From the NCBI RefSeq assembly GCF_902498785.1, contig NZ_LR701494.1, positions 124,001 to 188,000 on the forward strand: a stretch of DNA of 64,000 nucleotides, read 5' to 3'. The DNA comes from Sphingomonas sp. EC-HK361 (GTDB lineage Bacteria; Pseudomonadota; Alphaproteobacteria; Sphingomonadales; Sphingomonadaceae). This document shows positions 7,747 to 19,207 of this stretch, piece after piece. The translations under genes and the position numbers were made by a program. Positions within the stretch are counted from its first letter, which is position 1; every line of letters starts with the position of its first letter. The notes beneath the pieces were generated by a model. That model searched no databases, had not been told where the DNA came from, and worked only from the letters and a program-made list of their open reading frames with translations.

Positions 7747-7763
7747 ACCCAACCCCCGCTTGT

Positions 7764-7820
7764 GCTGAGCGAAGTCGAAGCACGTCCTGCCACCGCCCTT
7801 CGACTTCGCTCAGGGCAAAC
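7764..7820. repeat. Dispersed palindromic repeat between mce and the enoyl-CoA hydratase gene
   Basis: Arms ctgagcgaagtcgaag (7765-7780) and cttcgacttcgctcag (7798-7813) are exact inverse copies around a 17-nt loop; gggcaaac follows the right arm. The same core occurs in the inverted repeat at 13801-13962, and a variant with cttgtcgaag occurs between nuo genes. Confidence 0.85.
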
Positions 7821-7837
7821 GTAAGGTTGGAGCCACA

Positions 7838-8724: not shown

Positions 8725-10989
8725 ATGACTGAAAAGCACACCCTCGACGACTGGAACGCGCTCGCTGCCAAGGAGGTGAAGGGTCGCGACCTCATCTGGC
8801 CGACGCCCGAGGGCATCGAGGTAAAGCCTCTTTACACTTCTGACGACGTGACCGCGGACCCCGGCCTCCCCGGCTTTGCGCCCTTCACCCGTGGCGTCCG
8901 CGCATCGATGTATGCGGGGCGGCCGTGGACGATCCGGCAATATGCGGGCTTTTCGACCGCGGAGGAATCGAACGCCTTCTATCGCCGCAACCTCGCCGCG
9001 GGGCAGAAGGGGCTGTCGGTCGCCTTCGATCTCGCCACCCACCGCGGCTATGATAGCGACCACCCGCGCGTCGTCGGCGATGTCGGCAAGGCTGGCGTCG
9101 CGATCGACAGCGTCGAGGACATGAAGATCCTGTTCGACGGCATCCCGCTCGATCAGATGAGCGTGTCGATGACGATGAACGGCGCGGTCATCCCGATCCT
9201 CGCCTTCTTCATCGTCGCCGGCGAGGAACAGGGCGTCGATCGCAAGCTGCTCGACGGGACCATCCAGAACGACATCCTGAAGGAGTTCATGGTCCGCAAC
9301 ACCTATATCTACCCGCCCGAGCCGAGCATGCGGATCATCTCGGACATCTTCGCCTACACCTCCGCCGAGATGCCAAAGTTCAATTCGATCTCGATCAGCG
9401 GCTACCACATGCAGGAAGCCGGCGCGACGCAGGTGCAGGAGCTTGCCTTCACCATCGCCGACGGGCGCGAATATGTGAAATATGGCGTCGCGTCGGGGCT
9501 GGATATCGACAAGTTCGCCGGCCGCCTCAGCTTCTTCTTCGCGATCGGCATGAACTTCTTCATGGAGGTCGCGAAGCTGCGCGCTGCGCGGGTTCTATGG
9601 CACCGAGTGATGACGCAGCTCGGCGCGAAGGACGAGCGCTCGAAGATGTTGCGCACCCACTGCCAGACGAGCGGTGTCTCGCTGACCGAGCAGGACCCGT
9701 ACAACAACGTCATCCGCACTACGATCGAGGCTATGGCGGCGATGCTCGGCGGCACGCAGAGCCTCCACACCAACGCGCTGGACGAGGCGATCGCGCTCCC
9801 CACCGATTTCTCCGCCCGAATCGCGCGCAACACGCAGATCGTGATCCAGGAAGAGACGGGGATGACCAAGGTCGTCGATCCGTTGGGCGGAAGTTACTAT
9901 GTCGAGGCGCTGACGCAGGAGCTGGTCGACAAGGCGTGGGCGATCATCGAGCGGGTCGAAGCCGATGGCGGCATGGCGAAGGCCGTCGCACACGGCTGGC
10001 CCAAGGCGATGATCGAAGAGGCTGCCGCCGCCAGGCAGGCGCGGGTCGATCGCGGCGAGGACGTGATCGTCGGGGTGAACCGCTATCGCCGCGAGAGCGA
10101 GGATCATCTTGAGACGCTCGAGGTGGATAATGCGAGGGTCCGGGAGGGCCAGATTGCGCGGATCGCGAAGGTGAAGGCGGCCCGGGACGAGGCGGCGTGC
10201 CAGGCGGCGCTGGACGCGCTGAGGGAAGCGGCTCGCGAAAGTCCTCCCCTGCAAGGGGAGGGGGACCATGCGCAGCATGGTGGAGGGGGAGCGCCCTCTC
10301 GAGAGCGTGACACCCCTCCGTCAGACGCTGACGCGCCTGCCACCTCCCCTTCCAGGGGAGGATTGAAGCACAACATCCTCGCCCTCGCGGTCGAAGCGGC
10401 GCGCGCGCGCGCGACGCTGGGCGAAATCTCCGCCGCGATGGAGGATGTATTCGGCCGCTACGGCACGCAGCCGACCCCGGTAAAGGGCGTCTACGCCGCG
10501 CCCTACAAGGACGACACGCGCTGGGCGCAGGTCATCGCGGGGGTCGAGGCGGTCGCGCGCCGCCTGGGCCGCAAGCCGAAGCTGCTGGTCGCGAAGATGG
10601 GGCAGGACGGGCATGACCGCGGCGCCAACGTCATCGCCAGCGCGTTCGGCGACCTCGGCTTCGATGTGGTTTCCGGGCCGTTGTTCCAGACGCCCGACGA
10701 GACGGTCGTCCTGGCGATCGACAGCGGGGTCGATGCGGTCGGCGCGTCCAGCCTCGCGGCGGGGCACAAGACGCTGATTCCGGAACTGATCCGCGGACTG
10801 CGCGAGGCTGGCCGCGGCGACATCAAGGTGATCGCCGGCGGGGTCATCCCGCCGCAGGATTATGAATTTCTGCGCGATGCCGGCGTGCAGGGCATATACG
10901 GTCCCGGATCGAACGTGGTCGAATGCGCCGCCGATGTGCTGCGTCTGCTCGGTCACAACATGCCCCCGATGGAGGAAGCCGCCGAATGA
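8725..10989 (+). CDS. scpA: Methylmalonyl-CoA mutase, large-subunit type
   Basis: This 754-residue B12-dependent mutase converts (R)-methylmalonyl-CoA to succinyl-CoA. The catalytic barrel occupies about residues 1-500 ([70 protein letters not shown]). The C-terminal cobalamin domain (about residues 610-750) holds the cobalt-ligating DGHDRG motif. The start at ATG 8725 is chosen over a GTG at 8686 that lies inside a repeat. Family members are usually about 710-720 residues. The extra ~40 residues (about 506-547) are Pro/Gly/Ser-rich and encoded by an in-frame palindromic repeat in the linker. The next gene overlaps the stop by 4 bp (ATGA). Confidence 0.95.
10243..10361. repeat. Palindromic repeat inserted in frame within the mutase gene
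   Basis: Two hairpins with nearly the same sequence bound the element: cctcccctgcaaggggagg (10243-10261) and cctccccttccaggggagg (10343-10361). Between them are further inverted patches (ccatgcgcagcatgg, cctctcgagag). It is translated as a low-complexity linker between the mutase barrel and the B12 domain. A related hairpin lies before suhB at 13971-13991. Confidence 0.85.
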
Positions 10990-12370: not shown

Positions 12371-12738
12371 GGCTAATTGGACGTCTTGCGACGATGCTTG
12401 GCCTAGCGGCGTCCCCCGCGCTGGCTGGCGAAGGGATCACTTGGCCAGACCTGCCAACAACCGGCTTTGTCGTGGGCCGGACGGCGACTGTCGAAGACGC
12501 TAAAAAAGGTAACGCCACTTTCTCGATGGACGGAAAGAGTCAGGGTGCCCTGCCCATCGCAATTCCTCAATATGTATGGTGGACTGATGAAACGGGCTCA
12601 AAGCATCCCATGATTTTAGTTCAGGCCGAACTCGCGCCCGATGGCACGAAAATCGTTGGGCTTCGTGACTTTGGTGGAGAGGGAACGGTTGCAACTCTGC
12701 TGGAAGTCGAACTTCTCGGGACGAAAAAGCCAAACTAA
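12367..12738 (+). CDS. Small exported protein of unknown function
   Basis: This 123-residue protein has a signal peptide ([21 protein letters not shown]) and a mature domain of about 100 residues rich in beta-strand ([42 protein letters not shown]). It is not a recognised family. It overlaps bioB by 4 bp (ATGA) and pccA by 1 bp (TAATG), which is strong evidence for translation within this operon. Base composition is visibly less GC-rich than its neighbours, so it may be a later arrival in the operon. Confidence 0.7.
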
Positions 12739-13830
12739 TGTTCAAGAAAATCCTGGTCGCCAATCGCGGCGAGATCGCGTGCCGCGTCTTCCGCACCGCC
12801 AAGCGCATGGGCATCGCCACCGTTGCGGTCTATTCCGACGCCGACGCGCGCGCGCCGCATGTGTTGATGGCGGATGAGGCGGTCAGGCTCGGGCCGGCGC
12901 CGGCGGCGGAGAGCTACCTCAAGGCCGAGCTGATCCTGCTCGCCGCGAAGGAGACCGGCGCCGACGCGATCCATCCCGGCTACGGCTTCCTCTCCGAACG
13001 CGAGAGCTTCGCGCGGGCCTGCGCCGAGGCCGGCATCGCGTTCATCGGCCCGCCGCCGAACGCGATCGCGGCGATGGGCGACAAGATCGAATCGAAGAAG
13101 CTGGCGAAGGACGCGGGCGTCAACGTCGTCCCCGGCTTCCTGGGCGAGATCGCCGACACCGATGCCGCGGTGAAGATCGCCGGCGACATCGGCTACCCGG
13201 TAATGATGAAGGCGAGCGCGGGCGGCGGCGGCAAGGGGATGCGGCTTGCCTGGTCCGAGCAGGACGTGCGCGAGGGCTTCGAGGCGACGAAGCGTGAGGG
13301 GCTGGCTAGCTTCGGCGACGACCGCGTGTTCATCGAGAAGTTCATCGAAAGCCCGCGGCACATCGAAATCCAGGTGCTAGGCGATCAGCACGGCAACATC
13401 GTCTATCTGAACGAGCGCGAATGCTCGATCCAGCGCCGCCACCAGAAGGTCGTCGAGGAGGCGCCGTCGCCGTTCGTTTCGCCGGAGATGCGCCGCAAGA
13501 TGGGCGAGCAGGCCGTCGCGCTCGCGCGGGCGGTGGGGTATTACTCCGCAGGCACGGTGGAGCTGATCGTCTCGGGCGCGGATACCACCGGCGAGAGCTT
13601 CTACTTCCTCGAGATGAACACCCGGCTCCAGGTCGAGCATCCGGTGACGGAGGAGATCACCGGGCTCGATCTGGTCGAACAGATGATCCGCGTCGCGGCG
13701 GGGGAGCGGCTGGCGTTCGCGCAGGCGGATATCGGCATCAACGGCTGGTCGGTCGAGAACCGGGTGTATGCGGAGGACCCGTATCGCGGCTTCCTGCCGA
13801 GCATCGGGCGGCTGGTGCGGTATAATCCGC
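12738..13830 (+). pseudogene. pccA: Propionyl-CoA carboxylase alpha subunit, 3'-truncated
   Basis: About 364 codons encode the biotin-carboxylase N-terminus: [30 protein letters not shown], the ATP-grasp loop [11 protein letters not shown] and the [14 protein letters not shown] motif. Homology stops after [14 protein letters not shown]. Family members run to about 660 residues. The rest of the biotin-carboxylase C-subdomain, the BT domain and the biotin carrier domain with its AMKM lysine are absent. The break coincides with a 72-bp inverted repeat. The frame stays open through it into suhB, giving one 692-codon reading frame to 14816. This is either a real deletion/fusion or an assembly fold-back. 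As written, PccB has no partner able to carry biotin. Confidence 0.85.
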
Positions 13831-13962
13831 CTTCAGCCACTCCCACTCCGTTTGCCCTGAGCGAAGTCGAAGGGACGGGATCGCAAGGTGCTTCGACTTC
13901 GCTCAGGGCAAACGGAGTGGGAGTGGCTGAAGGCGGATTATACCGCACCAGCCGCCCGATGC
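13801..13962. repeat. 72-bp perfect inverted repeat at the pccA/suhB junction
   Basis: Bases 13801-13872 and 13891-13962 are exact reverse complements around an 18-nt loop (13873-13890). The outer ~30 bases of the left arm are pccA coding sequence ([10 protein letters not shown]). The inner part contains the dispersed repeat core (ctgagcgaagtcgaag). The right arm therefore carries an inverted copy of pccA coding DNA in front of suhB. Perfect arms of this length, including gene-specific sequence, point to a fold-back rearrangement or a chimeric assembly join. Confidence 0.95.
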
Positions 13963-13970
13963 CACCCCTA

Positions 13971-13991
13971 CCCCTCCCTTGCAGGGAGGGG
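13971..13991. repeat. Short hairpin repeat before suhB
   Basis: The palindrome cccctcccttgcagggagggg lies 13 bp before the suhB start. It is of the same cctcccc...gggagg type as the element inside the mutase gene, so a second repeat family abuts the junction. Confidence 0.75.
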
Positions 13992-14003
13992 GGAGTTTTC
14001 GAC

Positions 14004-14816
14004 ATGCCTTCCCATTCCGGCCTCTTCACCATCATCGAGCGTGCCGCGCGCAAGGCGGGGCCGCGGCTGCGCCGGGACTTCAACGAGGTCCAGCAGCTTC
14101 AGGTCAGCCGCAAGGGGCCGGCCGACTTCGTGTCGATGGCCGACCAGCGCGCCGAGCAGACGCTGTACGAGGAACTCTCCAAGGCGCGGCCGGACTGGGG
14201 CTTCCTCATGGAGGAGCGGGGCGAGGTTGCGGGTGATCCGAACAAGCCGCGCTTCATCGTCGATCCGCTCGACGGCACCTCGAACTTCCTGCACGGCATC
14301 CCGCATTTCGCCATGTCGATCGCGGTCGAGGAGCCGCTGCCGAACGGCAGGCGCGAGATCACGACGGCACTGATCTACAACCCGCTGACCGACGAGAGCT
14401 TCTGGGCCGAAAAGGGCCGCGGAGCGTGGGTTCAGTCGGAACGGCTTCGCGTGTCGTCGCGGCGTGATCTGTCGGACGCGCTCATCGCGACTGGCATCCC
14501 GTTCCTGGGCCATGGCGATTTCGTCCAGTGGAGCCGGATCTTCGGTGCGGTTGCGCCGCAGGTCGCGGATATCCGCCGCTTCGGATCGGCTGCGCTCGAC
14601 CTCGCCTGGGTCGCGGCCGGGCGCTATGACGGCTTCTGGGAGAGCGACCTGAAGCCGTGGGATGTCGCCGCCGGGCTGCTGCTGGTGAAGGAAGCCGGCG
14701 GTTTCGTCACCGATTTCCGCGGCGGCGATCGGCCGATGGAGCGCGCGGAATATCTTGCGGCGAACGACGTACTGCATTCCAAGCTCCACAAGCTCGTCGC
14801 GAACGCGCTTCGATAG
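14004..14816 (+). CDS. suhB: Inositol monophosphatase family protein (SuhB-like)
   Basis: This 270-residue Mg-dependent phosphatase has the DPLDGTSNF metal-binding motif (about residue 84, in [19 protein letters not shown]) and the C-terminal motif [15 protein letters not shown]. An upstream metal Glu is in FLMEERGE. It dephosphorylates inositol-1-phosphate or related sugar phosphates, and SuhB homologues also bind transcription complexes. ATG 14004 gives the normal family length. The frame continues upstream into truncated pccA without a stop, so a 692-residue fusion could be made as written. A promoter may lie in the lost DNA. Confidence 0.92.
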
Positions 14817-19124: not shown

Positions 19125-19207
19125 CGTCACCCCGGCCTTGACCCGGGGTCCCGCTTCTCTTTCTGCGGGACAAGTCAGCGGGACCCCGGCTCAAGGCCGG
19201 GGTGACG
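19125..19207. repeat. Large hairpin between nuoE and nuoF
   Basis: Arms cgtcaccccggccttgaccc... (from 19125) and ...ggctcaaggccggggtgacg (to 19207) are nearly exact inverse copies, each about 30 bp. It is a third repeat type in this window. It could slow the transcript or act as a processing or partial termination site within the operon. Confidence 0.85.

What the first reader, a model, noticed from the sequence alone, without database searches (positions are those of the whole stretch)
13801..14816. pccA cut at a 72-bp perfect inverted repeat and joined in frame to suhB
Homology to the propionyl-CoA carboxylase alpha subunit stops at [10 protein letters not shown]. The next DNA is a perfect 72-bp inverted repeat whose right arm contains an inverted copy of that same pccA coding sequence. 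The rest of pccA (BC C-subdomain, BT and biotin-carrier domain, about 300 codons) is absent. The reading frame continues without a stop into suhB, giving a 692-codon fusion. Either a repeat-mediated fold-back deletion made a new biotin-carboxylase/inositol-phosphatase fusion, or assembly joined two ends at a palindrome. PccB, epimerase, mutase, BioB and BirA are all intact, so a true loss of the biotin carrier would leave the pathway broken.
Basis: partly seen in the sequence, partly recalled or inferred. Interest (0 to 1): 0.7.

Follow-up and report, generated by a model that had tools for sequence, protein, structure and literature searches.

The report
Hairpin repeat breaks pccA sequence
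A gene for a propionate-metabolism enzyme carries a hairpin-forming repeat in its coding sequence, and at that hairpin the sequence folds back on itself and is joined to an unrelated gene, most likely through a copying or assembly error; the hairpin site itself looks like a favourite landing place for such repeats in related bacteria.

Summary
In detail: ORF 12738-14816 holds a perfect 72-bp inverted repeat, lacks the pccA 3' part and runs into suhB. Two layers explain it.

Layer 1, real biology: the inner stem is a sphingomonad REP-type repeat sitting in frame in a biotin-carboxylase loop. Of 95 relatives' pccA genes that I classified, 60 carry in-frame repeats of eight families in this same loop, and close relatives carry different families.

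Layer 2: the perfect arms are not native. Relatives' REP arms are asymmetric. Here the right arm looks native to base 13906, then is an exact inverted copy of 13801-13856, then suhB-upstream DNA. That is a hairpin-primed fold-back followed by a join. In relatives efp precedes suhB (79 of 80 loci), and pccA and suhB lie at least 24.6 kb apart (20 of 20 comparable genomes). Both breakpoints lie at palindromic repeats.

I favour a library or assembly chimera (about 0.7) over a chromosomal rearrangement (about 0.25); no reads and no genome for the window were available. A functional fusion enzyme is unlikely: most of the BC C-subdomain and the biotin carrier are missing, and an open in-frame join has roughly a one-in-five chance. 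The lasting interest is the loop hotspot.

The parts
12738..13831 (+). 5' part of pccA: biotin carboxylase N-domain, ATP-grasp domain and the first residues of the C-subdomain
   Evidence: Pfam; 90-95% aa identity to pccA of Sphingomonas relatives; best PDB match Ruegeria PccA 3n6r, residues 1-401 aligned
13832..13847 (+). variable linker before the REP; its inverted copy is in the right arm
   Evidence: no match to the conserved pccA sequence of relatives; linker of variable sequence in relatives
13848..13906 (+). REP-type palindrome in frame (PFALSEVEG...ASTSLR): left arm from 13848, stem 13857-13872, 18-nt loop, stem 13891-13906
   Evidence: same element at the same loop in 15 of 95 relatives' pccA; second copy at 7757-7821; core present 28, 13 and 36 times in G059, G073, G053
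13801..13872 (+). left arm of the perfect 72-bp inverted repeat
13891..13962 (+). right arm; 13891-13906 matches the native REP stem, 13907-13962 is an exact inverted copy of 13801-13856
13963..14003 (+). suhB upstream DNA beginning in another palindromic repeat (CCACCCC..CCCTCCC TTGCA GGGAGGG) with a GGAG ribosome-binding-like site
   Evidence: alignment to G162 suhB upstream starts at window 13962/13963
14004..14816 (+). suhB-type inositol monophosphatase family gene with its own ATG
   Evidence: Inositol_P 2e-60; 83-91% aa identity over the best segment in 80 Sphingomonadales loci
7757..7821 (.). second REP copy of the window, with native asymmetric arms (GTGCTGAGC / GCTCAGGGC)

Best explanation
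In this sphingomonad pccA carries a REP-type palindrome inserted in frame in the biotin-carboxylase loop after RYNPP. At some point a DNA strand ending in the right stem of that REP (CTTCGACTTCGCTCAG, 13891-13906) folded back on the left stem and was extended 56 nt on its own strand, copying 13856 back to 13801. That end was then joined to DNA just upstream of suhB, itself at a palindromic repeat. I think this happened in the tube or the computer (end repair or amplification chimera accepted by the assembler at a hairpin), so that the pccA-suhB fusion does not exist in the chromosome, while the in-frame REP in pccA does. Shown: the REP, its in-frame presence in relatives, the base-exact fold-back copy, the absence of the pccA-suhB arrangement in the relatives examined. 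Inferred: the priming step, that it was in vitro, and that an intact pccA exists elsewhere.
For: Native REP arms at this site are asymmetric: in 14 of 15 REP1-labelled linkers the 3' stem is followed by GCAC and in 0 of 15 by the GGC found here (sequences); the window's own second REP copy is asymmetric too. In the window GGTGCTTCGACTTCGCTCAG fits the native right arm, and from 13907 to 13962 the sequence is exactly the reverse complement of 13801-13856. Homology to G162 changes at one place: inverted pccA up to 13962, suhB upstream from 13962/13963. In 80 of 80 suhB loci no pccA or bioB lies in the held flanks (up to 5 kb) and efp is directly upstream in 79 of 80. In 20 of 26 relatives with both genes on one contig they lie 24.6 kb to 2.9 Mb apart in plain contig coordinates. 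94 of 95 classified orthologues are open through the loop to AMKM. Perfect arms of 72 bp against at most 35 in 1.09 Mb. Chimeric reads with inverted copies nucleated at inverted repeats or palindromes during library preparation are described in PMC10908179 (passages), and inverted chimeras from MDA in PMC1855051 (passages).
Against: No reads, coverage or own genome could be examined. Gene order in this genus is fluid: window 33.9-53.8 kb is also not one block in G222 and G162, so a synteny break alone does not prove error. PMC1855051 argues that hairpin self-priming is not the main route of MDA chimeras. The two sides do not differ in tetranucleotide make-up beyond the differences within the right side, so there is no sign of two organisms being mixed. 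A template switch of the same form can occur in living cells.
Confidence: 0.66

Rival explanations
1. A real chromosomal rearrangement: in the cell a broken or stalled 3' end in the REP folded back, copied 56 nt, then switched to the suhB-upstream repeat, deleting or displacing the rest of pccA and separating suhB from efp. The strain would lack propionyl-CoA carboxylase activity from this copy.
For: The same base-level signature is expected. pccA and suhB blocks have the same relative orientation in G222 (201 kb apart), G059 (351 kb) and G249 (24.6 kb), so a simple deletion would give this order. Template switching between inverted-repeat arms in living yeast is described in PMC8604942 and PMC3820800 (abstract starts in the listing).
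Against: A deletion matching G222 would remove 201 kb with efp and two tRNA genes (Glu-CTC, Arg-CCT); I did not test whether other copies of these tRNAs exist. None of the 80 suhB loci or 20 comparable genomes shows such a junction. Perfect arms mean that the event would have to be very recent.
Confidence: 0.25
2. A functional biotin-carboxylase/inositol-phosphatase fusion enzyme kept by selection.
For: The 692-codon frame is open throughout.
Against: Only 28 of 108 positions of the BC C-subdomain and no biotinyl domain are present. The stretch between REP and suhB translates inverted DNA. 61% of all positions on both strands are open for 33 codons, so with one frame in three an open in-frame join has about a 0.2 chance. 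The RNA would hold a -166 kcal/mol hairpin. suhB has its own ATG and a GGAG site. No relative examined has the arrangement.
Confidence: 0.02
3. Two different organisms' contigs joined (metagenomic chimera).
For: Joining at repeats between species is a known assembly fault (general knowledge).
Against: Tetranucleotide distance of the left block to the right blocks (0.120-0.140) lies within the range among right blocks (0.125-0.170) apart from two slightly smaller values. Ranking relatives by identity was uninformative: even two genes of the left block, or two of the right, showed no significant agreement.
Confidence: 0.05

Closest known systems
REP/REPIN-type palindromic repeats, including REPs inside genes (PMC3733652; passages and section 15 read)
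   Same: short dispersed palindromes; the paper reports REPs within ORFs in several species and, in two Xanthomonas species, different REPs at about the same site of recB; it also discusses S. wittichi CGTC repeats
   Different: here one loop of one enzyme holds eight label classes of palindromic repeats across 60 of 95 classified sphingomonad genes, with different families in close relatives
Rickettsia palindromic elements in coding sequences (seen as cited in PMC3733652; original papers not read)
   Same: palindromes inserted in frame in genes that probably make functional proteins
   Different: other sequences, other genus; here the site recurs while the element changes
Library-preparation and MDA chimeras (PMC10908179, PMC1855051; passages)
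   Same: inverted copy attached at an inverted repeat or palindrome
   Different: described from reads, not assembled contigs; here a second join to a distant locus follows after 56 nt
Quasi-palindrome template switching in cells (PMC3820800, PMC8604942; listing only)
   Same: an imperfect inverted repeat becomes perfect because one arm is copied from the other
   Different: those events stay local; here the copying runs beyond the repeat and ends in a distant locus

Membership tests
REP-type dispersed palindrome | palindromic stem-loop | tested here: met
   stem 13857-13872/13891-13906, also in 7757-7821
REP-type dispersed palindrome | many copies in the genome | tested here: inconclusive
   2 copies in the 64-kb window; own genome not held. 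In relatives with this element in pccA the 15-nt core has 28, 13 and 36 copies, and 0 in 9 genomes with other or no elements there, reversed-pattern control 0
REP-type dispersed palindrome | a REP-associated tyrosine transposase (RAYT) | not tested
   no search made for it
coding palindromes (Rickettsia RPE kind) | in-frame insertion in a gene that stays whole | tested here: met
   met in relatives: 94 of 95 classified orthologues read through to AMKM; the window's own gene is cut at the repeat
coding palindromes (Rickettsia RPE kind) | sequence similarity to a Rickettsia RPE | not tested
   not compared
propionyl-CoA carboxylase alpha subunit | complete BC C-subdomain, BT domain and biotinyl domain with AMKM | tested here: not met
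hairpin-primed sequencing or assembly chimera | exact inverted copy starting at a stem in the same strand | tested here: met
   13907-13962 = reverse complement of 13801-13856, stem of 16 nt
hairpin-primed sequencing or assembly chimera | minority or absence of junction molecules in genomic DNA | not testable with these tools
   no reads held

The most novel reading that the evidence does not exclude
The biotin-carboxylase loop of sphingomonad PccA is a standing landing site at which unrelated palindromic repeat families insert in frame and replace one another between close species, and the window caught an in vivo failure of that site: a REP hairpin primed a template switch that cut pccA and tied its 5' half to suhB.
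Probability: 0.2. Interest if true: 0.7.

Novelty: new variant of a known kind. Interest (0 to 1): 0.42.

Why it matters
For annotation: the apparent fusion should not be entered as a new bifunctional enzyme or as loss of propionate carboxylation without read support. For biology: one exposed loop near the BC active site accepts 18-79-residue linkers with repeat-derived sequence of eight classes in most of the sphingomonads sampled, while close relatives carry 9-residue linkers. If confirmed, this gives a natural, replicated experiment on how mobile palindromes become protein sequence, and an easy place to ask what targets them.

Tried and rejected
Tried without result: searching the window's own genome (none held). 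Ranking relatives by identity for genes left and right of the junction as a two-organism test: no usable signal. Rejected: that the right arm is a natural REP arm (14 of 15 REP1 linkers differ in the same way, none has the window's form). Rejected: homologous recombination between two REP copies as sole cause, because the inverted copy runs 47 nt beyond the REP into linker and pccA sequence. Rejected: synteny break as proof of error, since gene order is fluid. Weak evidence set aside: one relative's scaffold reads N inside the same linker; whether this is an assembly gap or a withheld stretch cannot be told, so it carries no weight here. Not tested: RAYT genes, loop hotspot outside this genus, randomness of the sample (the 103 pccA loci were taken from the best matches, not at random).

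Limits of the counts: 103 pccA-type loci were fetched; the parser read 96; 1 of these, a paralogue at 56% identity (L092), was dropped, leaving 95. The 7 not parsed were read by eye: one has a REP-like insert, one a GEG-like insert with N, five have short linkers without a recognised repeat; none of the 7 is in the 60 of 95. Families were assigned by motif rules of my own. In a shuffle test 54 of the 60 labelled linkers had an inverted repeat better than all 100 mononucleotide shuffles; of 22 unlabelled linkers over 30 nt, 2 did.

Full report
What is there. The window holds one open frame from 12738 to 14816, 692 codons. Its first 364 residues are the start of a propionyl-CoA carboxylase alpha subunit; the best solved relative by sequence is Ruegeria PccA, 3n6r. 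Pfam shows the N-domain and ATP-grasp domain, only the first 28 of 108 positions of the biotin carboxylase C-subdomain, then an inositol monophosphatase family domain, and no biotinyl domain. Between the halves lies a perfect 72-bp inverted repeat, 13801-13872 and 13891-13962, with 18 nt between. The 3' part of pccA and efp give no hit anywhere in the 64 kb.

The stem is a repeat element. The core of the palindrome occurs again at 7757-7821. In Sphingomonas relatives the same element sits at the same place of pccA, in frame, directly after RYNPP. It is a dispersed repeat: the 15-nt core is found 28, 13 and 36 times in three genomes that have it in pccA, and not at all in nine that do not.

The loop is a hotspot. 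I fetched 103 pccA-type loci from the best matches of two searches (13 genomes, 295 genomes; fetched through). The linker between RYxPP and the RVDDGV motif was parsed in 96; one paralogue was dropped. In the other 95 it ranges from 9 to 79 residues, never holds a stop, and 94 read on to AMKM; the exception, L111, has a later frame break. By my motif rules 60 of 95 carry repeat-derived sequence of eight classes: REP1 15, CGTC_a 13, SPLP 9, CGTC_b 8, GEG1 5, CGTC_c 5, GEG2 3, REP2 2. 54 of the 60 have an inverted repeat better than 100 of 100 shuffles, against 2 of 22 unlabelled linkers over 30 nt. On a quick tree of the part after the loop the labels (nine states, 'none' included) need at least 40 changes, and presence against absence 18; many branches have weak support and no shuffled-label control was made. 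Pairs at 95% or more identity after the loop differ in label 61 times ('none' counted as a label) and share a repeat label 40 times. An example is L121 with REP1 and L157 with another family, 98.5% identical in that part. In an alignment of 40 full-length PccA the loop is the largest gap block (78 columns); two smaller blocks (16 and 23 columns) lie near residue 540. In E. coli biotin carboxylase the arginine just after this loop is catalytic; that is recalled, not tested.

How the perfect repeat arose. Native REP arms at this site are asymmetric: 14 of 15 REP1-labelled linkers have GCAC after the 3' stem and none has GCTCAGGGC. The window's second REP copy is asymmetric too. The window's right arm begins as in relatives (GGTGCTTCGACTTCGCTCAG) and then, from 13907 to 13962, is exactly the reverse complement of 13801-13856. 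So a strand ending in the 16-nt stem was extended on its own left arm for 56 nt. Next comes suhB upstream DNA: the alignment to G162 begins at window 13962/13963 and opens with another palindromic repeat. Both breakpoints therefore lie at palindromes, and the second shows at most a base or so of ambiguity.

Is it in the chromosome? In 80 of 80 suhB loci neither pccA nor bioB lies in the held flanks, which reach at most 5 kb and are shorter at contig ends; efp is directly upstream in 79. Of 26 genomes searched, 20 have both genes on one contig, at 24.6 kb (G249) to 2.9 Mb in plain coordinates. The left block (about 5.25-13.84 kb) and the right block (13.96 to about 47.4 kb) are each collinear in G222 and G162, in the same orientation and 201 kb apart in G222. 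A matching deletion would take out 201 kb including efp and two tRNA genes. This favours an artefact, but gene order is fluid beyond 47 kb as well, and no reads exist here. Tetranucleotides give no hint of two organisms, and ranking of relatives was uninformative. Described artefacts of this kind: chimeric reads at inverted repeats and palindromes in library preparation (PMC10908179, passages) and inverted chimeras in multiple displacement amplification, where however hairpin self-priming was judged a minor route (PMC1855051, passages).

The fusion as a protein. It is unlikely to work as a carboxylase. An open in-frame join is not surprising: 61% of positions are open for 33 codons, times one frame in three. 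suhB has its own start. The transcript would form a -166 kcal/mol hairpin.

What is known. REPs inside genes, and even different REPs at about the same site in recB of two Xanthomonas species, are in print (PMC3733652, section 15), as are Rickettsia coding palindromes (cited there). My searches for this loop or for palindromes in sphingomonad coding genes listed no paper whose title or abstract start described it; supplements and subscription journals were not searched.

Verdict. The hotspot is the part worth keeping.

Noticed in passing
pccA loop in L081-L123 and L128-L187: Landing site of in-frame palindromic repeats of eight label classes in 60 of 95 classified sphingomonad pccA genes, with different classes in close relatives.
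   Followed up: partly
window about 10239-10365: The linker between the methylmalonyl-CoA mutase domain and the B12 domain also holds a dispersed repeat in frame ([24 protein letters not shown]). The stretch matches dozens of places in G222; of 13 relatives whose linker was parsed out of 20 fetched, L191, L196 and L202 have inserts there and 10 do not.
   Followed up: partly
PccA near residue 540 of the L081 protein: A second, smaller variable region (gap blocks of 16 and 23 columns) in 40 aligned full-length PccA.
   Followed up: no
G099 and G219, methylmalonyl-CoA mutase: The mutase match is split into two (G099, with one stop inside one piece) or three (G219) pieces, which suggests a broken gene or sequencing error.
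   Followed up: no
L111 (G047): pccA has a frame break after the loop and no AMKM in frame.
   Followed up: no
window 19125-19207: 97% complementary 31-bp inverted repeat before nuoF; the stretch matches many places in G162, so it is another dispersed palindrome.
   Followed up: no
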